Below, one piece after another: positions 27,802 through 61,142 of a stretch of DNA of 64,000 bases. The position numbers and the translations under genes were made by a program. The DNA is taken from assembly GCA_030524425.1 (NCBI GenBank), contig JAUNGN010000002.1, forward strand, positions 62,001 to 126,000. Direction: 5' to 3'. The DNA comes from Clostridia bacterium. Its GTDB lineage: Bacteria; Bacillota; Clostridia; Lachnospirales; CAG-274. Positions within the stretch are counted from its first letter, which is position 1. Each line of letters opens with the position of its first letter. The notes beneath the pieces are model-generated. The model worked only from the letters and a program-made list of their open reading frames with translations. It did not search any database and was not told where the DNA came from.

Positions 27802-30726
27802 ATGAAGAAAGGCTTAAAAAGAATTTTAAGCACAGTATTGACTGCAGCCATGTTAGCTTCAAGCTTTGTAGTTACCAACATGGGTGCGGTTGCTGTAAAT
27901 GCAGCTTCCATAACAGCACAAAGCGGCGGATGGCATGAAACTGCATATACAGAGTGGCTTCCCGTTTCGGGAGCAGCTTCATACGAAGCTTATGTAAAGG
28001 CTTCATCAGCAGGCAGTTATACAAAGCTTGATGATGAATTGGTACGTCAGTACGACACTTTCTGCCGTGCTGATGCATTGGGTCTTGCCGCAGGTACTTA
28101 CAATATGAAGATTGTGGCAAAGGACAGCTCAGGTGCAGAGCTTGCGTCATGGGAATCAGGTGCAGTTACTGTTGATAATTACATCCGTGACGGTTTTGCA
28201 TTTTCAGACGGCGGAAGCAGTTCAGGTGCTTACAACGATGACGGTACATTAAAGAGCAATGCAATTGTTTTTTATGTAACAGATGAAAACAAGGACACAA
28301 TTACTTGTGACGTTACAACAAGCACTAAGGGCACAACAACCTGTGTAGGTATGGGTGCAATCATTAAGGCTCTTGAAAAGGGCTATGAAACAAGACCTAT
28401 GAACTTCCGTTTTATAGGTCAGGTAACTGTACCGGCTGATGAGCAGACATTAAATCAGCTCGATATCAAGAAAGCAAAAAATCCTATTACTCTTGAAGGT
28501 GTAGGAAATGATGCTTTTGCACTTTTCGGCTTTAACCTTGTTGGAGCAACTAATCTTGAAGTAAGAAACTTTGGCTTCAAGGATATGACAACAAAGGATG
28601 AGGACGGTGTTACGGTAAAGGATGCCAGTGAGAGAATCTGGGTTCATAACAATGATTTCTTCTACGGCGGTCAGGGCAGTGATAATGACCAGGCTAAGGG
28701 CGACGGTTCCGTTGACCTTAAGGGAACCTCAACTAAAATGACAATTTCCGATAACCATTACTGGGATGCAGGAAAGGTAAACCTTTGTGGCTTAGGTGAA
28801 AGTGCCGATTATGAAATTACATACTCAAGAAACTGGTTTGACCATTCAGACTCAAGACATCCAAGAGTAAGAACAGGTTCAGTACACGTATACAACAACT
28901 ACTATGACGGTGTTGCAAAATACGGTGCAGGTGCTTGTACAGGCGCATCACTTTTTGTTGAAGGCAACTACTTCAGAAATACTAAGAAGCCTGTTATGAG
29001 TTCTATGCAGGGTACAGACGCTCAGGGTACCGGTACATTCTCAAAGGAAGCCGGCGGTATCATAAAGATGTATGACAATATTATGGTAGGTTCCTATACA
29101 TATATTGAAGCAAACAACAGCGACGGAACCTTAAATCAGGATTCTGACGGCTATACTGTAGCAAACAGAAGTGATACGGTACCGTCTTCACTTACAACAG
29201 TTAAGGGCGGCACTTCATACAACAACTTTGATACTGCAAGAGATTTAGGTGTTGATGCATCAGGCGTTTTAGCAGCTAAAGATGTTCCTGCTTATGTAAC
29301 TGCAAATGCAGGACGTATTAACGGCGGTAACTTCAGGTTTACATTTGATGATTCAGTAGATGATGAGGATTATAATGTAAATCTTGAGATGAAGAGTGCT
29401 TTGGGAAGTTATAAATATCAGGCTGACAACTCTTATGTAAGCAGTAAGAGTGCTACAGGCATTGACGGCAGCACATTCTATGCTGACAGAGCAGAAGCTT
29501 ATGAAACAAAGGTTGCATCTCTTGCAACAGAAACCGATCCGTCAGGCAATAAAGCTACAGGCGGAGGAAGCGTATCAAGCTTTGACCTTGTATTGGATGG
29601 CAAGACTGATATTTCTACAGGTTCAATAACATCTAATGTAACAGGTCTTGGTACAAATGGTGCATTCTCAATTCTCGCATCATCATCAGCTTCTGTTACA
29701 ATAAGTTCATCTAAGGGTATTCAGCTTGGCGGTGCAGGTAATTTTGCGGCAGGCACTCGTCTTATAAGTGTTGATGTTGCGGAAGCAGGTACAATTTATG
29801 CAACTTCTTCTTCAACAAGTACAGATGTAAGAACTCTTAATATTGCTGATGCAAGCGGTAATATTATCGGTACAATTTCAACAGGCACATCAGATGGTGT
29901 AGCATTGCCTTCAGCAGGTACATATTATATTTACTCAGCAAGCAAGGGTATTAATGTTACTAAGGTGGCTGTAGCTTACGGAAGTTCCGAGGATTCATCA
30001 CAGACTACTACTAAGGGTGATTCATCACAGACAACAACTAAGACAGAGCCTACTACTCAGGCAACAACAAACAGCGAGAATTCATCACAGACCACTACCA
30101 AGTCTGTTGAAAATTCAACAGAAACAACTACAAATACTGTTATAGATGACGGTTTTGCTGCTGCAGGCAAGTATGTATTAGGTACATCAGCAAGCGGCGG
30201 TGACTTTAATATTACCTCTAAGACTGTTGAAGCAGGTAATGTAAACTTTGCATTGCGTGACATTCAGTCTACAGGCGGAAGAATCAGAAGTGAAGAAGAC
30301 GGCGGTTATATTACCTTCGAGCTTGAAAAGACTGCAAAGATTTCTATAATGGTAAACAGCGGCAGAGATGATGTTAAAATCAGAGATTACGATTCAGCAG
30401 ATACTATTGCTGAATATCCGGCAGGCTCTGAGTCAACACATGAGCTTTCTGCAGGCAGCTACATTATTGAATCAGTAAATGACTCTAACGCTGAAATTGC
30501 TTACATTATAGTCAGCTATGATTCAACTCCGGATCCTTCAGGAGTAATAGGTGATGCAAATAATGACGGCAAGGTTAATGCAGATGATGTAAATATGGTT
30601 CTTGACTATGCGTCAGGCAAGATCTCTGCTGTTACTAATCCTGAGTTAGCTGATGTTTCAGGTGACGGAACAGTTACAGCATACGATGCTTATCTTATAG
30701 GTAAGATTATACTTGGTTTAAAGTAA
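27802..30726 (+). CDS. Secreted pectate lyase (PL1) with C-terminal dockerin
   Basis: 974 residues. Signal peptide about 1-36 (ends NAA). A fibronectin-like module (about 40-130) begins GGWHETAYTEW. The PL1 beta-helix (about 135-450) contains RIWVHNNDFFYGGQG, then GDGSVDLKGTSTKMTISDN, and the active-site RHPRVR (about residues 351-358) before VHVYNNYYDG. PL1 enzymes cleave polygalacturonate by calcium-dependent beta-elimination. A beta-sandwich (about 590-730), a Thr/Ser linker (about 730-780) and another sandwich (about 790-900) follow. The last 62 residues are a type I dockerin with two calcium motifs (GDANNDGKVNADDVNMV and DVSGDGTVTAYDAYLI). The dockerin implies docking onto a cohesin. Confidence 0.93.
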   Translation: MKKGLKRILSTVLTAAMLASSFVVTNMGAVAVNAASITAQSGGWHETAYTEWLPVSGAASYEAYVKASSAGSYTKLDDELVRQYDTFCRADALGLAAGTYNMKIVAKDSSGAELASWESGAVTVDNYIRDGFAFSDGGSSSGAYNDDGTLKSNAIVFYVTDENKDTITCDVTTSTKGTTTCVGMGAIIKALEKGYETRPMNFRFIGQVTVPADEQTLNQLDIKKAKNPITLEGVGNDAFALFGFNLVGATNLEVRNFGFKDMTTKDEDGVTVKDASERIWVHNNDFFYGGQGSDNDQAKGDGSVDLKGTSTKMTISDNHYWDAGKVNLCGLGESADYEITYSRNWFDHSDSRHPRVRTGSVHVYNNYYDGVAKYGAGACTGASLFVEGNYFRNTKKPVMSSMQGTDAQGTGTFSKEAGGIIKMYDNIMVGSYTYIEANNSDGTLNQDSDGYTVANRSDTVPSSLTTVKGGTSYNNFDTARDLGVDASGVLAAKDVPAYVTANAGRINGGNFRFTFDDSVDDEDYNVNLEMKSALGSYKYQADNSYVSSKSATGIDGSTFYADRAEAYETKVASLATETDPSGNKATGGGSVSSFDLVLDGKTDISTGSITSNVTGLGTNGAFSILASSSASVTISSSKGIQLGGAGNFAAGTRLISVDVAEAGTIYATSSSTSTDVRTLNIADASGNIIGTISTGTSDGVALPSAGTYYIYSASKGINVTKVAVAYGSSEDSSQTTTKGDSSQTTTKTEPTTQATTNSENSSQTTTKSVENSTETTTNTVIDDGFAAAGKYVLGTSASGGDFNITSKTVEAGNVNFALRDIQSTGGRIRSEEDGGYITFELEKTAKISIMVNSGRDDVKIRDYDSADTIAEYPAGSESTHELSAGSYIIESVNDSNAEIAYIIVSYDSTPDPSGVIGDANNDGKVNADDVNMVLDYASGKISAVTNPELADVSGDGTVTAYDAYLIGKIILGLK

Positions 30727-30756
30727 GTTAACTGATTAATTAATCGGTTCTTTAAT

Positions 30757-30779
30757 CTCCCTGCTTTTAAAGCAGGGAG
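30757..30779 (+). terminator. Hairpin between the two PL1 genes
   Basis: CTCCCTGC / GCAGGGAG with a 7-nt loop but no T-run; a small TGACC/GGGTCA hairpin follows. It may trim or attenuate the message rather than end it. ACTGATTAATTAATCGGT at 30,731-30,748 is also palindromic. Confidence 0.45.
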
Positions 30780-30823
30780 GTATAATGACCTAAGGGTCAA
30801 ATTTAAAAGGAGGAAATTTAAAC

Positions 30824-33800
30824 ATGAAAAAGTGTTTTAAGAAGACCTTAAGCGGTATTCTTGCAACTGCAATGCTTTTTTCATCAGTAGCAATTGGTCC
30901 CGTTACTGCTCAGGCGGCAGGCTTTTCTGTAGCAGCAGGCTGGAATGAAACTATTTACGCTGAATGGCCAGATTCAAATCCTGACAGTGCAAATGTTACT
31001 GTTGGATACAGACCAAAGGGATCTACTGCTGATTATACATATCTTACAGGCGATGATTTGACTTACCTTGTAAGAGCGGCATCTTCAAGCGGATATGGCC
31101 GTGTTGATATACCGGGTGTTGCAGCAGGTAACTATGAATTAAAGGTTACAGCCTCTGACGGTACAGAGTATATTAATAATAATATTAAGGTATATGCTCA
31201 TGACCGTTCAGGCTATGCTCACTTTAATTATTCACAGGGTGTAGGTGCATATAATAATGACGGTACACCAAAGGACAATGCGGTTATTGTTTATGTAACC
31301 GATGAAAATAAGGATACAGTCGAGCTTCCGGGCTATGAGGGAAAGACATGGAGCTATACTCCTTCAAGCGGTGATCCTTATACAAGAACCGGCGTGGGTA
31401 TAGGTAATATTCTTAACAATAATATGAAGCTTGTTCAGGAAGTTACACTTACTGATAACAGACCTATTATTGTAAGACTTGTGGGTACAGTTACCGTACC
31501 TGAAAACTTAACTCCTTATAATGTTAAGGATCCTATCCTTGGCGGTGCTAAGGGTGATAACGGTAATCTTGCAATTACAAAGTATGCAAGAAATGTTACT
31601 ATTGAGGGTATCGGTGATGATGCTACAGTTGACGGCTGGGGCTTTACATTTTCACAGACAGCTACTTGTCCTGCTGAGGCCGGCGAGAGCTTTGAAATAA
31701 GAAACCTTACATTTAAGAACTATACAGAGGATGCTACTGCATTCCAGGGCGATGATGCCATTACAGCACCAATCAGAAGAATTTGGGTACATAACAATAC
31801 TTATTATCCGGGTTATTGTGCTAACCCTGCTCAGTCTGATAAGGCAGAGGGTGATGGTGCTATTGACTTTAAGAGAGGTCATAACTTTACATTGGCATAC
31901 AATCACTTTGTAAAGTGTCATAAGACAGGTCTTATCGGTTCAAGTGAAAAGATAGTTCAGTATAACAGTACATTACACCATAACTGGTATGAAAGTGTTG
32001 AAGCAAGACAGCCTCTTGCTGCAGGCGGTAATATTCATATTTATAATACCTACTATGATCAGTCATCAAGTGTTACTATTGACCTTAGAGGCGCTGCATC
32101 TTGTTTGGCTGAAAGCAATTACTTTAATACTTGCAGCAGACCATGGAATTTAAGAGATTCAACTTGCAGATTAAAGCTTTACAATAATATAAATGAAAAT
32201 CAGAAAAAAGCCGGTACTATTAACGGTACAGTTGTAGAAGCTTCAGCAAGATCAGAAGAAGGTCTTTCAGATAATGGTCTTACAATGATAGACGGCGGAT
32301 CTATTGCAAACTGGGATTTAAATACTGCATACTTCTACTGCGATGCATCAGGCAATACACAGGTAACAAGATTAGATGATGCTGCTGATGTTCCTGAGGT
32401 TGTTGCAACATATGCAGGTACATTAAAGGCATTCCCTATAACAGAATCAGGTACAGTTAAGGTTACTGTTACAGATGCAAGCGGTAATGCAATAACTGAT
32501 GCAACAGTAACAGCAAGCGGTTTAACATTTACTAATACAGGTAATGGTGTTTACACAGCACAGGCTGCTCTTGGCGGTGAGTATCAGGTTACAGTATCTA
32601 AGGAAGGCTATTCAAATGTTGTTTTCAATGCTGCCGGCTTTGAGAATGACGGTGATATATTTGACAAGACTGTTGCTTTACAGGTTGATTATGACGGCTA
32701 TGCTGTAGTTAAGCTTACAGGCGGTTCAAATAATGAAGCTGTTAAGGGTGCAACTGTTAAATTAGCTGACGGCACTGTATTAGCTGACCAGGGTGACGGT
32801 ACTTATAAGTCAGCAGATCAGATTGCAACAGGCAATTACACAGTTACAATTGCAGATACAGGTGACTATATTGCACCAACAGATGCTCAGGCAATTGTTG
32901 TAAAGACAACAGATGCTGCTACAGAAATTCACCTTGAAAAGTACAAGGGTACAGTTTCTGTTACATTGCAGGCAGAGGCAGACGAAACTCAGCCTCTTGA
33001 CGGAACCAATGCAAAGGTATTTGTAGGTTCAACTCAGCTTACATCAACTGACGGACTTACATTTACAGGCGATGTTGAAGTAGGCACAGCTTATAATGTT
33101 ACAGTTACTCTTGCAGGCTGGGCAACAACATCAGTTACTCCTGCTAAGTTAACTGCTTCAAGGACAGATACAGCTTCTGCTGTTGCTGTATTAAAGTATA
33201 AGGGTGCTCTTTATACTTGGAATTATACAACTGATACAAATACAGATAACTTCTTTACAATATCAGGCGAAAGCAGCTGGTCAAGTGCAGGAAGCAATCC
33301 TCAGATATTTGACGGCGAAGAGCTTACTGCTGCTATTAAGATGAATTCAAGTGCAACTGTTACATTTGAGGCTCCTGCTGACGGTACAATTACATTAGTT
33401 ATGGAGGGTACAGGCTCTGTTGACATTGTTAATGCTACAACAGGAACTACTACTACATGCAATGTTACTACAGGTACTAATACATTTGATGTTCAGGCAG
33501 GTGTTAATACAATAAAGAAAAACAAGACAGAAACACATCTCTATCTTGTACAGTATGCTATTGGTGATTCTGTTTCAGAAAATACTACAGAAACAACTAC
33601 CGGCGGTTCAGAGGTAACTACTACCGGCGGAGACACTCCTGTAGAGACTACAACTTCTGAAGTAGTTCCGCCTTCAGGTGATAATGTTATTAACCAGAGT
33701 ATGACTATTTCAAGAGGCTTAAATGACAGTTATGTAACTGTTAATAACGATAAGAATACAAGCGGTGCTTGGAAGAATGATAAGTACAACTCATCATCAG

Positions 33801-35767
33801 CTCCGGGCTGGATTGAATTTACACTTGGAAAGTCTGCAAATGTAGCAATTACAACAGGCGGTGAAAAGGTTCTTTATATTTCTAAGACTGTTGGTGATAC
33901 AGCAAATGCAGTATTCTCAATTCCTTCAGGAACAACAGAGGGTAATGCAGATTTGGAAGCCGGTACTTATTACATCTTTAATACATCCGGTAATCAGACA
34001 ATAAGTCAGATTGTAGTAACAATGGACAGCTCTTCTGACGATACTACAGAAACAACTACTGTAACAACTACTGTTGAAACAACAGTAACTACGACTCAGA
34101 AGGCAGAAACAACTACTGAAACCACAACAACAGAGCCAACAACTCAGGCTCCTGTATCAGGTGTTCAGATAAGTGTTGAGGGTGTTGCTGCAAAGGCAGG
34201 CACTCAGGTTGTTATCCCTGTAAAGCTTACAGGCGTATCAACTCTTGCATCTTATGATGTAAATATTGCATTTGATTCTTCCAATATTACTGTTGATTCC
34301 GTAACAGCAGGTGATATGATTACAGATTCAAATGCTGCAATGAGCTACACTATCGGTGATGGTATTGTTGGTGTTGCAGGCTCTAACCCTTCTGATACAA
34401 TTGCCGAAGGCAAGGATGTATTATTCAATTTAGTAATTACTCCTAAGACTGCAGGCAGCTATGAATTAACAATAACTGTTGATGAAATGTATGTAGCTGA
34501 AGGAACTGCAGCTGATGTAACTGCTGAGTCAGGTACAGTTACAGTTGAGGAAGATGTTGATCCAACAGGTATACGCGGTGATGTAAATAAGGACGGCAAG
34601 GTTGACGCAATTGATGCAGCTATTGTATTAAAGATTGCTTCAGGTATTATTACTGATACTACTCCTTATGATATGACTGCAGCTGATTGTAACGTAGAAA
34701 ACGGCGACGGCAGTGTAAATGTGCTTGATGCTGTTTGGATTCTTAATAATCAGAGCGGCGGCAGTTCTTCTGATGAAACAACAGAAGCAACTACAGAAGC
34801 TCCTGTATCAGGTGACTTGGTAGAAACAGCCAATGCAGGTGATGTGGCAGCAACAACATATTCAGCTCCATTTGCAATTGGTAACTTTATTGTAACAGCT
34901 GATGAAACAAATACAGTAGCAGTTGATGCAAATTCTAAGACAATTGACGGCTACAGCTTTACACAGAGAATCAAGTTAGGCGGTGCAGGCACTGTTGATT
35001 ACAGATCAATCAAGTTTGAAACAACAGGTGCAGGTAATGTTGTTGTATACGCAGCATCATCAAACGGTACATCTGCAAGAGTAATGCAGATACTTGATGC
35101 AAGCGGAGCACAGGTTGCATCAGCAGATGTTCCGGGCTCAACAGCTACACCTATTGCTAAGTATACATTAGCAGTTCCTTCTGCAGGTACTTATTATCTT
35201 GGAAGTACAACAGGCGGTCTTAATGTTTACTTTGTAGGTACAGACGTGGCTCTTGTGGCTCCTGAGGAAATTCCTACTCAGGCTGAGCAGTCTTCAGAGA
35301 CTACAAGTGAGTCTTTAAGCGAGACTTCAAGCGAGACACCTTCTGAAACAACAACAAGCGGTGCAGCTGCAGGCAATTCATGGACAGCAGGTGACACAGC
35401 TCCTGACTGGATTAATCTTAACGGTGCAGCTGCATCAAGCAACAGTTATACAGCATTTTCAAATACTGCTAACGGCGGTACAGCTTTTGCTAATGCAGTA
35501 AGCCTTGCAGCAGGCAGCACATTTACTGTAACTCCACAGAGTGCAGGAACTGTTAAGGTATATATAGCTGCTAATAATAACAGTGATGGCAAGGGTACTG
35601 TAACTGCTGCTTATGCAGATAGTACAGATGCAGGCACTTATTCATTGCCTAACAGAAAGTCAACAGATGCTACAGCTTTTGAGGTTGCTGTAAGTGACGC
35701 TCAGGTTGGTCAGGCTATTACATTTACAAACAGCTATAATGCTTTCTTGTTTAAGGTAGAGAATTAA
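30824..35767 (+). CDS. Giant secreted PL1-family protein with internal cohesin-like and dockerin modules
   Basis: 1,647 residues, signal peptide about 1-32. The order is: fibronectin-like module (GWNETIYAEW, about 35-130); PL1 beta-helix (about 140-500); two or three CnaB/Ig-like repeats (about 545-800); a sandwich module (about 800-915); Thr/Glu linker; another sandwich (about 955-1,070); Thr linker; cohesin-like domain (about 1,112-1,240); type I dockerin (about 1,249-1,310, GDVNKDGKVDAIDAAIV and GDGSVNVLDAVWIL); linker; sandwich (about 1,330-1,480); Ser/Thr linker; final module to 1,647. In the PL1 core the usual RxPxxR reads RQPLAA (about 393-398): the second arginine is gone. It may therefore have weak, altered or only binding activity. 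Cohesin and dockerin in one chain would let it link other proteins. Confidence 0.88.
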   Translation: MKKCFKKTLSGILATAMLFSSVAIGPVTAQAAGFSVAAGWNETIYAEWPDSNPDSANVTVGYRPKGSTADYTYLTGDDLTYLVRAASSSGYGRVDIPGVAAGNYELKVTASDGTEYINNNIKVYAHDRSGYAHFNYSQGVGAYNNDGTPKDNAVIVYVTDENKDTVELPGYEGKTWSYTPSSGDPYTRTGVGIGNILNNNMKLVQEVTLTDNRPIIVRLVGTVTVPENLTPYNVKDPILGGAKGDNGNLAITKYARNVTIEGIGDDATVDGWGFTFSQTATCPAEAGESFEIRNLTFKNYTEDATAFQGDDAITAPIRRIWVHNNTYYPGYCANPAQSDKAEGDGAIDFKRGHNFTLAYNHFVKCHKTGLIGSSEKIVQYNSTLHHNWYESVEARQPLAAGGNIHIYNTYYDQSSSVTIDLRGAASCLAESNYFNTCSRPWNLRDSTCRLKLYNNINENQKKAGTINGTVVEASARSEEGLSDNGLTMIDGGSIANWDLNTAYFYCDASGNTQVTRLDDAADVPEVVATYAGTLKAFPITESGTVKVTVTDASGNAITDATVTASGLTFTNTGNGVYTAQAALGGEYQVTVSKEGYSNVVFNAAGFENDGDIFDKTVALQVDYDGYAVVKLTGGSNNEAVKGATVKLADGTVLADQGDGTYKSADQIATGNYTVTIADTGDYIAPTDAQAIVVKTTDAATEIHLEKYKGTVSVTLQAEADETQPLDGTNAKVFVGSTQLTSTDGLTFTGDVEVGTAYNVTVTLAGWATTSVTPAKLTASRTDTASAVAVLKYKGALYTWNYTTDTNTDNFFTISGESSWSSAGSNPQIFDGEELTAAIKMNSSATVTFEAPADGTITLVMEGTGSVDIVNATTGTTTTCNVTTGTNTFDVQAGVNTIKKNKTETHLYLVQYAIGDSVSENTTETTTGGSEVTTTGGDTPVETTTSEVVPPSGDNVINQSMTISRGLNDSYVTVNNDKNTSGAWKNDKYNSSSAPGWIEFTLGKSANVAITTGGEKVLYISKTVGDTANAVFSIPSGTTEGNADLEAGTYYIFNTSGNQTISQIVVTMDSSSDDTTETTTVTTTVETTVTTTQKAETTTETTTTEPTTQAPVSGVQISVEGVAAKAGTQVVIPVKLTGVSTLASYDVNIAFDSSNITVDSVTAGDMITDSNAAMSYTIGDGIVGVAGSNPSDTIAEGKDVLFNLVITPKTAGSYELTITVDEMYVAEGTAADVTAESGTVTVEEDVDPTGIRGDVNKDGKVDAIDAAIVLKIASGIITDTTPYDMTAADCNVENGDGSVNVLDAVWILNNQSGGSSSDETTEATTEAPVSGDLVETANAGDVAATTYSAPFAIGNFIVTADETNTVAVDANSKTIDGYSFTQRIKLGGAGTVDYRSIKFETTGAGNVVVYAASSNGTSARVMQILDASGAQVASADVPGSTATPIAKYTLAVPSAGTYYLGSTTGGLNVYFVGTDVALVAPEEIPTQAEQSSETTSESLSETSSETPSETTTSGAAAGNSWTAGDTAPDWINLNGAAASSNSYTAFSNTANGGTAFANAVSLAAGSTFTVTPQSAGTVKVYIAANNNSDGKGTVTAAYADSTDAGTYSLPNRKSTDATAFEVAVSDAQVGQAITFTNSYNAFLFKVEN

Positions 35768-35853
35768 GGTTAAATTTAGGCACATACACTAAGCAATGTG
35801 GGAAATGTAGTAAATTGTAGTAAAATTTGTAACTATTTTGTTGCATTTCCCTA

Positions 35854-35882
35854 TTGCAAAATTTAGAATTATGTTATATAAT
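35854..35882 (+). promoter_or_regulatory. Sigma-A promoter of the cohesin-like operon
   Basis: TTGCAA, 17-bp spacer, TATAAT. Upstream, GGGAAATG (35,800-35,807) and CATTTCCC (35,844-35,851) form an inverted repeat around direct repeats of TAGTAAA, a possible operator. Confidence 0.75.
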
Positions 35883-35915
35883 ATGTATAACATAAAATTG
35901 AATAGGAGGTAAAAT

Positions 35916-36668
35916 ATGAAATTAAGAAGTGTATTTGGTGCACTTGTGGCTTTCGGTGCTATGGCACTTATGGCTGTCGGTGTACAAGCTGCTACATATT
36001 CTGCAGGCGCTTCCAGTCCTGAAGCAGGTGTTGCTTCTATTCCCGTAATAGTTACACCTGATGAAGGCGAATCAGATGTAAAGGTCAGTGGTTATGTTAT
36101 GACTCTTACTTATGATTCTACTAAGGTTACGCCTAAGGTTTCAGCTACTAAGGACGCAACTGATGCTGACTGCTATGCTACAGTTGACCCTGTTTTCGGC
36201 GGCGATAATACAGTTTTGGTATCAGATATAGTTGCAACTGATGGCGATAATAAGACATTGGCTGTTGCATGGGCAAGCTCTGCTCCTGTTTCAGTTTCTG
36301 ATGTTGCTAATATGGCAACTGTTGAGTTTGAAGTTGCTGACACAGCTACAGGAGATGTTCCTATTACTGTTGCTGTAACTGCATTGACTAATGATGGCAC
36401 TACTAATGTAGATGCTAGTACAATAACTACTGCTAATGGTGAAATTAATATAGCGGATGCGTTTAAGTATGGTGATATAAATGAAGATGGTGCTGTTGAC
36501 TCATTTGATGCTAATATGGCATTAAAGCATTATTCAAGTGCATTTTTAACAGCTAGACAGATTACTATTGGGGACGTAGATGGTAATGGAATTGTTGATT
36601 CATTTGATGCTAATTTAATTTTAAAGAAGTATTCAGATTCTACATTTGTATTTCCGGTTGAACAATAA
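35916..36668 (+). CDS. Secreted cohesin-like protein with C-terminal dockerin
   Basis: 250 residues. Signal peptide about 1-25 (ends VQA). Residues about 28-180 have the beta-sandwich pattern of a cohesin (VASIPVIVTP, GYVMTLTYDSTKV), here diverged. The last 65 residues are a dockerin with two strong, nearly identical calcium motifs, GDINEDGAVDSFDANMAL and GDVDGNGIVDSFDANLIL. It is first in a small operon; AGGAGG precedes the ATG. A cohesin-dockerin pair in so small a protein suggests an adaptor or a subunit that can self-chain. Binding partners are not known. Confidence 0.8.
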   Translation: MKLRSVFGALVAFGAMALMAVGVQAATYSAGASSPEAGVASIPVIVTPDEGESDVKVSGYVMTLTYDSTKVTPKVSATKDATDADCYATVDPVFGGDNTVLVSDIVATDGDNKTLAVAWASSAPVSVSDVANMATVEFEVADTATGDVPITVAVTALTNDGTTNVDASTITTANGEINIADAFKYGDINEDGAVDSFDANMALKHYSSAFLTARQITIGDVDGNGIVDSFDANLILKKYSDSTFVFPVEQ

Positions 36669-36689
36669 GAGCGAAGGAAGGTTAAAAAC

Positions 36690-37646
36690 ATGAAAATAAA
36701 AAGCATTTTAAGTTTAGCTGTAATTGCAGGAGTTACACTTTTTGCAAGTTCTGCTTATGCAGCAACAGAAAGCTATTCTGTTGGAACACCTATTGATTTA
36801 TCAACAGGTGCTGCTGTTGAAGAATACAAGGTTGGACAGATTGTTGCACTTCCTGTAGATTTTGAGTCATCAACAGGTTCAATTCAGGCTACAGGTATTT
36901 CTTTAAATTTTGATAATTCAGTTTTATCTTATGGTGCAGATTTAAGTAGTATTACATCTGATTCAGTTATGACATCTAACCTTATGTCTTTAGGTGAAGT
37001 TAAATTTAATTCAGACAGTTCTAAAGTAATGCTTGTTAATGGTTTATTTAGTAAAAATGTGTTAACTGGTGCAATTACTGGTATAGGTACTATGTATGTA
37101 CCAGATGAAGCAACAGATGGAACTAAGGTTAAAATTCCGTGGGCATCAGGTGGTATTTCTATAGCTACAAAGGACACACCTGAACTTTACATTATTTTTA
37201 CAGTAACTGGTACTATTAGTAAGGATTCATTAAATGTAGAATTGGTTACAGTTAATGATAGTGAATGTAATATTGGTGATAATGAAAGTCACTTAAATGT
37301 AAGTGGTACTGTTTTTGACAAGATTAACGCTTGTGATGGTGCATTTAAGATTGTAGTTGACGGTTCTCAGTTACCTTACTGGGTACAGGGTGTTGATGTA
37401 GAAATTGATGGTACAACTTATCCGCTTGATGCTTGTGTTAATGCTGAGGGTGAAACAGAATACAGCTTCCCTGTAAGACTCACTTCTGCTGCTGATGAAG
37501 CTAGTGTTAGTGTAGCTATTAAGGCTCAGGTTTCTGATACAGAAGCCGGTCCGGATACAAGTCTTAGGGATTGGGGTACTGTAACTGTAGACATGAGTGG
37601 TACAGCTACTACATACGCTGCAAATAATATTGATTTAAGTAAGTAA
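36690..37646 (+). CDS. Secreted cohesin-like beta-sandwich protein
   Basis: 318 residues with a signal peptide (about 1-24, ends AYA). The first half (about 40-205) resembles a cohesin or related sandwich: VGQIVALPVDF, then GISLNFDNSVLSY. The second half (about 215-318) is a different beta domain without a recognised family. It lacks a dockerin, sortase motif and SLH domain, so how it stays at the surface is unclear. It starts 22 bp after the cohesin-dockerin gene and is followed 22 bp later by the 43-residue peptide gene. Confidence 0.65.
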   Translation: MKIKSILSLAVIAGVTLFASSAYAATESYSVGTPIDLSTGAAVEEYKVGQIVALPVDFESSTGSIQATGISLNFDNSVLSYGADLSSITSDSVMTSNLMSLGEVKFNSDSSKVMLVNGLFSKNVLTGAITGIGTMYVPDEATDGTKVKIPWASGGISIATKDTPELYIIFTVTGTISKDSLNVELVTVNDSECNIGDNESHLNVSGTVFDKINACDGAFKIVVDGSQLPYWVQGVDVEIDGTTYPLDACVNAEGETEYSFPVRLTSAADEASVSVAIKAQVSDTEAGPDTSLRDWGTVTVDMSGTATTYAANNIDLSK

Positions 37647-37667
37647 TTATTAAGGAGGAGATTTAAA

Positions 37668-37799
37668 ATGAAGAAATATTCAAAGCCAGAAATGGAAATT
37701 GCTGCCCTTAATAATTCTGATAAAATCTTATTAAGTGGCGGCGTTAATGTTGCTCAGTTCAATAAGAACGGTAAAGATTATACAGGAATTAATTTCTAA
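37668..37799 (+). CDS. 43-residue peptide, possible leader-type or secreted small peptide
   Basis: A short gene with an excellent ribosome site (AAGGAGGAG, 7 bp before ATG), in the same unit as the two cohesin-like genes and directly followed by a strong terminator. The peptide begins MKKYSKPEMEIAALNNSDKI and continues LLSGGVNVAQFNKNGKDYTG. The start KKYxKPExE and the SGG in the middle are typical of short peptides widespread in Firmicutes, some of which look like leader peptides ending in a GG-type site. There is no Cys and no modifying enzyme or dedicated peptidase nearby. Function is unknown. Confidence 0.75.
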   Translation: MKKYSKPEMEIAALNNSDKILLSGGVNVAQFNKNGKDYTGINF

Positions 37800-37810
37800 T
37801 AGTTATTTTA

Positions 37811-37844
37811 AAAAGAGGTCGTTTCAGAACGATCTCTTTTTTTT
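37811..37844 (+). terminator. Rho-independent terminator of the cohesin-like operon
   Basis: AAAAGAGGTCGTT / AACGATCTCTTTT, a stem of 13 pairs (one G-T) with a TCAG loop and a long T-run. Confidence 0.92.
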
Positions 37845-37921: not shown

Positions 37922-38518
37922 TTACTGTATTTCTATTTCCTTAGTTCCTTCAGGTGCTTCATTAGGGTCAATACCTTCAATTCTTATAAATGGTACATTT
38001 ATCTCGCTTGTTATAGTGGTATTTCCTATTGTCTCAGTTTTCTTTTCAGGAGTAAATTCATTATCATTTGAATTATTTTCTGTTTTTTCAGATGCTTCAT
38101 CTGTGCTGTCAGCATCTATATAAGCAGTTTTGTTTTCATTATCCCAGTTAACCTTTGCATCAACGGCTTCCCCGACTGCTCTTAACGGAAGCATAAATCT
38201 GCCCTCAATTATCTGCTGAGGTACATCAGGAGTAATTACATTATCATTCACAGTAAAACTGCTTTCACCGTTAGTAAGTTTAATGACTGTTTCCTTATCA
38301 CTGTTTGTCAATACGGCAGTCTTTGTGTTTGCATCCCATTCAACATCATAGCCCATATATTCAAATACTCCTCTTACGGGCACCATTGTTCTGCCGTCAA
38401 TAATTATACCCTTGTCTGCAACTAAATTGCCGTTAGAATATACAGTTACGTTTTCATCTGCCATAGCCGGTGTTGTAAGCATAAGAGCTGTCACAGCAGC
38501 AATTATAATTTTTTTCAT
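37922..38518 (-). CDS. Secreted copper-amine-oxidase-N (stalk) domain protein
   Basis: 198 residues, signal peptide about 1-20 (ends AMA). Residues about 22-130 form a classic stalk domain with both repeats: GRTMVPVRGVFEYMGYDVEW and GRFMLPLRAVGEAVDAKVNW. The tail (about 135-198) is Glu/Asn/Thr rich and ends in a short strand-rich segment. Here the stalk is at the N-terminus, unlike the two proteins at 351-2516. It is a single-gene unit with its own terminator. Function unknown; surface location likely. Confidence 0.8.
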   Translation of the reverse strand: MKKIIIAAVTALMLTTPAMADENVTVYSNGNLVADKGIIIDGRTMVPVRGVFEYMGYDVEWDANTKTAVLTNSDKETVIKLTNGESSFTVNDNVITPDVPQQIIEGRFMLPLRAVGEAVDAKVNWDNENKTAYIDADSTDEASEKTENNSNDNEFTPEKKTETIGNTTITSEINVPFIRIEGIDPNEAPEGTKEIEIQ

Positions 38519-59989: not shown

Positions 59990-60032
59990 AAGAATTAATC
60001 AAATTATGTGTATATATAAGGAGGCTATAATA

Positions 60033-61142
60033 ATGAAAAAGAAATTATTAAGTATAATTGCTTTAGCTATGGCAATGACTATGACTACATCAGCTTTTGC
60101 TGCTCCAAGAGCAAGAGGTACAGGCGATGTTGACGGAGACAGTTTGCTTACTGCCAACGATGTTCTTAAAATTTTAAATGAGGTTAACGGCGGAGAGTCA
60201 GCAGGCTCTGAGGCTAACACTGACGGCAGAAGCGGTATTACGGGTTCTGATGTTAATGTTGCATATAAGACTCTTCTTCAGCCTAAGAATGTTAAGGAAG
60301 ACCTTGTATTTAATGTTTACTCTAATGGTTTAGCAAATGATGTTGATTACAATGTCATGAATGCAAGTGACTTTGGTGTTGGAACTAAGGCTGATGAGAA
60401 GGGTACTGAAAAGGTTGATGAGGGAGTTAGTGTTACTCCTGCAACAACTATTAAGGATGCTATTGATCAGTTAGTTGATTTAGCTGCCAATCAGAAGACT
60501 GCAGGTATTAATGATCAGTTAAATAAGATTTACTTTAACAGTGCTAATAAGGGAGAGGTTTACTTAAGATCAGAAAACGGCTGGTCTATGTTATGTAATG
60601 CTTTAAGATATATTGTTCCTATGGATGCTGCTACTGCTGCCCTTTGTAATAAGGCATCTAATGCTAATTATGATCCTGAAACTGCTACAGAAGAGCAGAA
60701 GGCAAGATATGATGCATTAATGGAGGCCAAGAAGCTTATTGTTGGCAGTGACAAGGCACCTGCTGCCGATATTACTGAGGAAGCTGCTAAAGCACAGTGT
60801 ACAACTGAATTAACTGCTGCTGATATTATTAAAGTTAAGGATGCTTTATGCAAGGCAATTCCTTCAGGTCTCGAAAAGGAAGCGATTGAGAATACTGCTA
60901 AGGAAGTATTAAAGATTACTGATACCAAGTATGCGGTTACTGCTGAATTTAATGGCAGTACAGAAACACTTTCTGAGGCGGGTGTAGATACAAGTGCATT
61001 TATAAGCGCTCTTGTTTCTTTAGCTGATTACGAAAAAAAGAATATGGCTGATTTCAGAGCTGCATTTGGCGATAAGCTTGCAGTTTCTAATGGTAATATT
61101 GATGTTACATTTGAAGTAGCTGTTGTTGCATCTGCTCAGTAA
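60033..61142 (+). CDS. Secreted protein with N-terminal dockerin and unknown C-terminal domain
   Basis: About 369 residues from the ATG at 60,033 (AAGGAGG upstream). Signal peptide about 1-23 (ends AFA). A dockerin follows at once (about 29-83): GDVDGDSLLTANDVLKIL and a second, weaker motif NTDGRSGITGSDVNVAY. Residues about 85-369 are mostly helical and match no family I recognise; they lack catalytic motifs. An N-terminal dockerin is unusual, since most are C-terminal. It could attach a structural or binding protein to a cohesin. It stands alone between its promoter and a terminator. Confidence 0.75.
   Translation: MKKKLLSIIALAMAMTMTTSAFAAPRARGTGDVDGDSLLTANDVLKILNEVNGGESAGSEANTDGRSGITGSDVNVAYKTLLQPKNVKEDLVFNVYSNGLANDVDYNVMNASDFGVGTKADEKGTEKVDEGVSVTPATTIKDAIDQLVDLAANQKTAGINDQLNKIYFNSANKGEVYLRSENGWSMLCNALRYIVPMDAATAALCNKASNANYDPETATEEQKARYDALMEAKKLIVGSDKAPAADITEEAAKAQCTTELTAADIIKVKDALCKAIPSGLEKEAIENTAKEVLKITDTKYAVTAEFNGSTETLSEAGVDTSAFISALVSLADYEKKNMADFRAAFGDKLAVSNGNIDVTFEVAVVASAQ

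What the first reader, a model, noticed from the sequence alone, without database searches (positions are those of the whole stretch)
27802..37799. Candidate surface pectin-degrading assembly built from dockerins and cohesin-like domains
Two dockerin-bearing PL1 proteins, a cohesin-like/dockerin protein and another cohesin-like protein are consecutive; a third dockerin protein and an SLH protein lie at 60-62 kb. The parts for a cellulosome-like complex aimed at pectin are present, though no classical multi-cohesin scaffold is in view.
Basis: partly seen in the sequence, partly recalled or inferred. Interest (0 to 1): 0.65.

Follow-up and report, generated by a model that had tools for sequence, protein, structure and literature searches.

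The report
Scaffold-less pectinase chain with swappable connectors
A gut bacterium encodes pectin-cutting enzymes and small linker proteins in one operon, apparently hooked together like a chain of plugs and sockets, and related species swap the last plug and its socket together as one DNA block while leaving the rest of the chain unchanged.

Summary
ORF1 (27802-30726) is PL1-dockerin. ORF3 (35916-36668) is cohesin-dockerin. ORF4 (36690-37646) has no Pfam match, but its model has a cohesin-like fold (Z 10). A 43-aa ORF5 (37668-37799) and a terminator-like hairpin follow.

The genome has about 22 dockerin proteins; no protein with two cohesins was found. One SLH protein carries a divergent cohesin. 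The 60-62 kb genes are not shown to belong.

The operon recurs across the GTDB family, nearly always ordered dockerin, cohesin-dockerin, cohesin. I infer a chain in which each dockerin binds the next gene's cohesin; binding is untested.

New: a swapped cassette. Among three close species ORF3's cohesin is 85-91% identical, its dockerin only 21-36% and ORF4 17-29%. DNA similarity stops at the cohesin/dockerin border and resumes at ORF5. ORF3's cohesin tree follows genera; ORF4's rejects the window's genus (p 6e-9); the dockerin tree shows ORF4's clan split. Dockerin repeats share recognition residues within a protein (0.83), not between species (0.16). A second locus shows the same co-variation.

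Verdict: new variant of the cellulosome-like kind.

The parts
27802..30726 (+). ORF1, 974 aa: secreted PL1 pectate lyase with C-terminal dockerin (dockerin about 30550-30711)
   Evidence: Pfam; conserved as first gene of the operon in relatives
30824..35767 (+). ORF2, 1647 aa: PL1 lyase, CarboxypepD_reg-like, CBM77, cohesin, dockerin, further modules
   Evidence: Pfam; relatives
34163..34546 (+).
   Evidence: Pfam 43 bits; PDB cohesins by phmmer
34577..34741 (+). ORF2 dockerin (residues 1252-1306)
   Evidence: Pfam 34.1 bits
35916..36668 (+). ORF3, 250 aa: secreted cohesin-dockerin protein (adaptor-like)
36030..36446 (+). ORF3 cohesin (residues 39-177), follows the species tree
36468..36629 (+). 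ORF3 dockerin (residues 185-238) with two matched repeats; 5' part of the variable cassette
36690..37646 (+). ORF4, 318 aa: secreted protein with cohesin-like N-domain (residues 22-208) and an unknown C-domain; second part of the variable cassette
   Evidence: model and fold comparison; variability
37668..37799 (+). ORF5, 43 aa conserved small peptide MKKYSKPEMEIAALNNSDKILLSGGVNVAQFNKNGKDYTGINF
37810..37841 (+). terminator-like hairpin with T run, end of the operon
   Evidence: consensus scan, 14-pair stem; sequence

Best explanation
The operon encodes a secreted pectin-degrading complex without a multi-cohesin scaffold. Each protein has at most one cohesin and one dockerin, and I infer that each dockerin binds the cohesin of the next gene: ORF1 Doc to ORF2 Coh, ORF2 Doc to ORF3 Coh, ORF3 Doc to ORF4 Coh. 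This would give a 1:1:1:1 chain of two PL1 lyases, an adaptor and a terminal cohesin protein. The last connection (ORF3 dockerin plus ORF4) lies on one contiguous DNA stretch. Between species it is replaced as a unit by stretches with a different matched recognition code, while the inner connections stay in the closest species. Shown by sequence: domains, gene layout, conservation, internal dockerin symmetry, sharp borders of the divergent block, conflicting trees, co-variation of ORF3 dockerin with ORF4. Inferred: physical binding, the next-gene pairing, surface attachment (perhaps through the SLH-cohesin or CuAO-cohesin proteins), recombination as the cause, and the reason for the swaps.
For: Domains and folds. 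No protein with more than one cohesin found in this genome. Order Doc -> CohDoc -> Coh in 51 of 57 polar neighbour pairs; 5 of the 6 exceptions are one other gene type. G005/G006/G007: ORF2 cohesin 96-98%, ORF2 dockerin 93-98%, ORF3 cohesin 85-91%, but ORF3 dockerin 21-36% and ORF4 17-29%. DNA similarity of about 91% (G005-G006, G006-G007; 81% over a longer stretch for G005-G007) falls away at the cohesin/dockerin border and resumes at ORF5 in the two pairs with G006. Mantel ORF3 dockerin vs ORF4: 9 species rho 0.54 p 0.0016; 17 species 0.37 p 0.0002, partial on ORF3 cohesin 0.33 p 0.002. Trees: ORF3 cohesin follows genera; ORF4 rejects the window's genus as a clade, p-AU 6e-9, and groups G011, G014 and G015 with two species of another genus, 100/100, a group the ORF3 cohesin rejects, p 0.0005; the dockerin tree shows the same two clans. 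Dockerin repeats equal at recognition positions within a protein, 0.83 vs 0.16 between species, p 5e-5. With rpoB controlled, D1-C2, D2-C3 and D3-C4 are each the best Doc-Coh match in row and column. Second locus, LRR-dockerin next to cohesin-stalk: Doc-Coh rho 0.60 p 0.0006, while cohesin vs the stalk of its own protein is 0.12, n.s..
Against: No binding data and no complex prediction. Partial correlations for D1-C2 (p 0.12) and D3-C4 (p 0.07) are not significant one by one after the rpoB control. Over 17 species ORF3 cohesin also correlates with ORF4 (rho 0.37). ORF4's model is modest and its alignment poor. The statistics were chosen after seeing the pattern, with few and related taxa. The 68-column dockerin tree does not by itself reject G005/6/7 as a clade (p 0.42). 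ORF4 has no recognised anchor.
Confidence: 0.6

Rival explanations
1. Cohesin-dockerin proteins bind themselves or copies of themselves (intramolecular lock or homopolymer), as proposed for R. bromii Amy4; the next-gene pairing is not used.
For: ORF2 and ORF3 carry Coh and Doc a few residues apart; self-aggregation of Amy4 was proposed in PMC5814915.
Against: Within ORF3 the cohesin is kept while the dockerin is replaced (85-91% vs 21-36%), which would break self-binding; its dockerin follows ORF4 instead. Within ORF2 D2-C2 (0.27) is weaker than D2-C3 (0.45) with rpoB controlled, though the difference is small.
Confidence: 0.12
2. Classical cellulosome-like system whose multi-cohesin scaffold is missing from the draft genome.
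For: Genome is a 74-contig draft, 97% complete; some relatives have two-cohesin proteins (L068, L069, L070).
Against: Family and profile searches found at most one cohesin per protein here; the operon is complete and chain-like in many relatives.
Confidence: 0.12
3. ORF4 (and perhaps ORF3's N-domain) is a generic beta-sandwich adhesin; the variability is antigenic or phage-driven and unrelated to docking.
For: ORF4 has no Pfam match; Foldseek's first hits for the whole model are pilins and adhesins; the protein is highly variable.
Against: The N-domain ranks cohesins first (Z about 10) and its variability goes with that of the neighbouring dockerin; the LRR locus repeats the pattern with cohesins, the window genome's own being over the Pfam cut-off.
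Confidence: 0.13
4. One reading: a surface assembly including the 60-62 kb dockerin and SLH genes.
For: SLH repeats are real; one good F-hand at 60 kb.
Against: Dockerin match of only 12.7 bits; the SLH protein has no cohesin; they lie 22 kb away; no link found.
Confidence: 0.03

Closest known systems
Ruminococcus bromii amylosome (Amy4/Sca1; PMC5814915)
   Same: An enzyme carrying both cohesin and dockerin; cell-bound complexes for one polysaccharide
   Different: Starch, not pectin; sortase anchors; its dockerin enzymes are described as remarkably conserved between strains, whereas here the last connector is replaced between species
Monovalent adaptor scaffoldin (class in PMC11557425; e.g. 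R. flavefaciens ScaC)
   Same: ORF3: one cohesin plus one dockerin and no enzyme
   Different: No primary scaffold for it to join; its dockerin is exchanged together with the next gene
Clostridium perfringens pairwise cohesin-dockerin glycosidases (discussed in PMC12997984)
   Same: Scaffold-free, enzyme-to-enzyme linkage
   Different: Here an ordered operon with chain-extending cohesin-dockerin proteins
Limousia mucinolysome (PMC12997984)
   Same: Cellulosome-like complex for another substrate in gut bacteria
   Different: It has tandem-cohesin scaffoldins; none was found here

Membership tests
Cellulosome (classical) | scaffoldin with tandem cohesins | tested here: not met
   at most one cohesin per protein genome-wide; draft genome, 97% complete
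Cellulosome (classical) | dockerin-bearing polysaccharide-degrading enzymes | tested here: met
   PL1, pectinesterase and GH88 with dockerins
Cellulosome (classical) | cell-surface anchoring cohesin protein | tested here: inconclusive
   C49:46439-47824 has 3 SLH plus a cohesin-like domain, 21 bits with an HMM not built on it; orthologue L106 Cohesin E 0.003; the 80 bits are circular
Cellulosome-like complex | calcium-dependent high-affinity Coh-Doc binding | not testable with these tools
   needs ITC, ELISA or complex prediction
Type I dockerin (PF00404) | two F-hand calcium repeats | tested here: met
   ORF1-3 over the cut-off; both repeats read out for ORF1 and ORF3, ORF2's second carries a 3-residue insertion
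Cohesin (PF00963), ORF2 | profile match over the cut-off | tested here: met
   43 bits vs 24.1
Cohesin (PF00963), ORF3 | profile match over the cut-off | tested here: not met
   20.2 bits vs 24.1
Cohesin fold, ORF3 | cohesin beta-sandwich in a model | tested here: met
   Foldseek top hits are cohesins, Z about 11
Cohesin fold, ORF4 | cohesin beta-sandwich in a model | tested here: inconclusive
   Z 10.1 to cohesins, but pLDDT 66 and no sequence match
Monovalent adaptor scaffoldin | one cohesin and one dockerin, no enzyme | tested here: met
   ORF3

The most novel reading that the evidence does not exclude
Matched cohesin-dockerin pairs are exchanged between gut bacteria as single DNA cassettes, giving each species a private connector that keeps its own enzymes on its own complex and shuts out those of relatives: a lock-and-key that privatises a public good.
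Probability: 0.3. Interest if true: 0.87.

Novelty: new variant of a known kind. Interest (0 to 1): 0.68.

Why it matters
It would show an ordered cohesin-dockerin chain without a scaffold, written in gene order, and natural replacement of matched plug-and-socket pairs. That makes the evolution of cohesin-dockerin specificity directly testable in near-identical species, supplies many natural, probably orthogonal pairs for synthetic assembly, and offers a possible mechanism by which gut bacteria keep secreted enzymes private.

Tried and rejected
Multi-cohesin scaffold in the genome: searched with Pfam and with a family profile, none found. Literature for Monoglobus with dockerins, 'pectinosome', pectin with cellulosome-like systems, and cohesin-dockerin exchange: no description found in the held library; most subscription journals are not held. 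ORF4 against PDB sequences: nothing. A second ORF4-type cassette in the same genomes as a donor store: the ORF4 profile found about one full copy per genome, the other hits being weak matches to ORF3 and other cohesins. A terminator as the 3' border of the cassette: wrong, similarity resumes at the start of ORF5. ORF5 against Pfam and NCBIfam: nothing convincing. An SLH protein on C24 with a weak cohesin-profile hit: not confirmed by Pfam or hmmsearch. The weak cohesin-like hits in C67 and C11:75719 were not pursued.

Full report
Setting. The window is positions 62001-126000 of a 178.6-kb contig in a 2.62-Mb, 74-contig draft genome, 97.2% complete. Named relatives with the same genes are Candidatus Gallispira edinburgensis and uncultured Clostridia genomes labelled Lapin. 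Relatives are given below as G handles.

What is in the sequence. ORF1 is a PL1 with a C-terminal dockerin. ORF2 is PL1, CBM77, cohesin, dockerin and further modules. ORF3 is cohesin plus dockerin. ORF4 has no profile match. AlphaFold models built from nine orthologues give ORF3 a cohesin sandwich followed by a dockerin (dockerin Z 12.3, cohesin Z about 11). ORF4 residues 22-208 get a cohesin-like sandwich (Z 10.1), with modest confidence. A 43-codon gene with a strong ribosome site follows 21 bases after ORF4, and then a terminator-like hairpin. Gaps between genes are 97, 148, 21 and 21 bases, so ORF1-5 look like one operon; transcription was not tested.

Genome inventory. There are 23 or more dockerin matches over the cut-off. 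Dockerins sit on four PL1 proteins, two pectinesterases, a GH88, two beta-helix proteins, LRR proteins, a lectin and others. No protein with more than one cohesin was found. Cohesin carriers include a Cu-amine-oxidase-domain protein beside three LRR-dockerin genes, a 3-SLH protein with a divergent cohesin (C49:46439-47824), and a free cohesin beside a 3-SLH protein with several dockerins (4 Pfam stretches) and 7 Big_3 domains (C29).

Conservation. In the GTDB family, 38 of 48 genomes have cohesins over the cut-off. The operon recurs in several genera, shortened in some (no cohesin on the enzyme) and with an extra cohesin-dockerin protein in one. It is patchy: ORF4 was not found in G012, the nearest species by rpoB but only 77% complete, nor in G013, 99% complete. 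Neighbouring genes run dockerin -> cohesin-dockerin -> cohesin in 51 of 57 polar pairs. Many of these are orthologues, so the count is not 57 independent cases; five of the six exceptions are the C29 type.

The variable cassette. G005, G006 and G007 have rpoB identities of 92-96%. Their ORF2 cohesin and dockerin and ORF3 cohesin are 85-98% identical. ORF3 dockerin is 21-36% identical and ORF4 17-29%. At DNA level about 91% identity (G005-G006, G006-G007) ends near ORF3 base 540-600, the cohesin/dockerin border. Similarity resumes for 52-66 bases at the start of ORF5 in the two pairs with G006; for G005-G007 the alignment, 81% over a longer stretch, simply ends at the border. Reading frames, most calcium-ligand positions and internal symmetry are kept, so this is not decay.

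Pairing. ORF3 dockerin identity tracks ORF4 identity. For nine species Mantel rho is 0.54, p 0.0016, unchanged when ORF3 cohesin is controlled. For 17 species it is 0.37, p 0.0002, partial 0.33, p 0.002; in that wider set ORF3 cohesin also correlates with ORF4 (0.37). The ORF3 cohesin tree groups species by genus. The ORF4 tree rejects the window's genus as a clade (p-AU 6e-9) and G005/6/7 (p 0.009), and unites G011, G014 and G015 with G021 and G019 of another genus (100/100), which the ORF3 cohesin rejects (p 0.0005). The dockerin tree shows the same split (91/94) and rejects window plus G011 (p 0.001), although these two have 94% identical rpoB and 63% identical ORF3 cohesins. It does not reject G005/6/7 as a clade (p 0.42). 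The clades tested after the trees were seen make these p-values optimistic; the genus groups were defined beforehand.

Dockerin code. At eight recognition or helix positions the two repeats of one ORF3 dockerin agree at 0.83, while repeats of different species agree at 0.16 (permutation p 5e-5). Loop positions show little such excess (0.34 vs 0.27). This is the signature expected for a dual-binding dockerin whose two faces stay matched to one partner. The choice of recognition positions follows published type I dockerins as I remember them.

Chain model. With rpoB distances controlled, the best cohesin for ORF1's dockerin is ORF2's (0.30), for ORF2's dockerin ORF3's (0.45, p 0.011), and for ORF3's dockerin ORF4's (0.29). 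Each is the maximum of its row and column, but two of the three are not significant alone. Window versus G011 shows the mosaic: D1 48%, C2 33%; D2 65%, C3 63%; D3 27%, C4 21%.

Second locus. Eleven LRR-dockerin / cohesin-stalk neighbours give dockerin-cohesin rho 0.60 (p 0.0006; partial on stalk 0.59). The cohesin does not follow the stalk of its own protein (0.12). In two paralogous copies of G014, DNA similarity stops near the dockerin start and resumes in the linker after the cohesin domain. In both loci the dockerin ends one gene and the cohesin begins the next, so one stretch of DNA holds both partners.

Judgement. The parts, the chain-like order and the replacement of matched modules are shown by sequence. 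Binding, the exact pairing, anchoring, recombination as the cause and the selective reason are inferred. The closest known cases are the R. bromii Amy4 enzyme with both modules (PMC5814915), the adaptor and anchoring classes of PMC11557425, and scaffold-free pairs discussed in PMC12997984. I found no report of exchange of matched cohesin-dockerin cassettes in the held literature, which lacks most subscription journals.

Noticed in passing
window 37668-37799; also L170-L172: ORF5 belongs to a family of about 42-52 aa peptides (MKKYxKPE..I......SGG + variable tail), up to about 20 matches per genome in this family and none in some genera. In the own-genome copies checked they sit next to large, mostly secreted-looking protein genes. 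Possibly a leader plus variable core; function unknown.
   Followed up: partly
L036 2714-7866 (C29); L095, L096, L097, L099: A cell-surface protein with 3 SLH repeats, Big_3 domains and several dockerins next to a free single-cohesin gene, conserved in several species: an anchor that carries the dockerins, the reverse of usual cellulosome anchors.
   Followed up: partly
L043 9940-11325 (C49:46439-47824); L106 3708-5129: Single cohesin-like domain plus 3 SLH repeats, candidate surface anchor; orthologue in G016.
   Followed up: partly
L068, L069, L070: Relatives have two-cohesin proteins, so somewhat larger scaffolds exist in the family though none was found in this genome.
   Followed up: no
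window 60006-61142: Secreted 378-aa protein with one good F-hand and a degenerate second one; a dockerin remnant or relative.
   Followed up: no
window 37922-38518 (-): Small secreted protein (VYSNGNLVADKGI...GRT) convergent to the operon end and kept at this place in G011, G014, G015 and G016.
   Followed up: no
L038 3203-6547, L039 2720-3715: Proteins with a weak cohesin-like match near their C-terminus, each followed by another large gene with a signal-peptide-like start.
   Followed up: no
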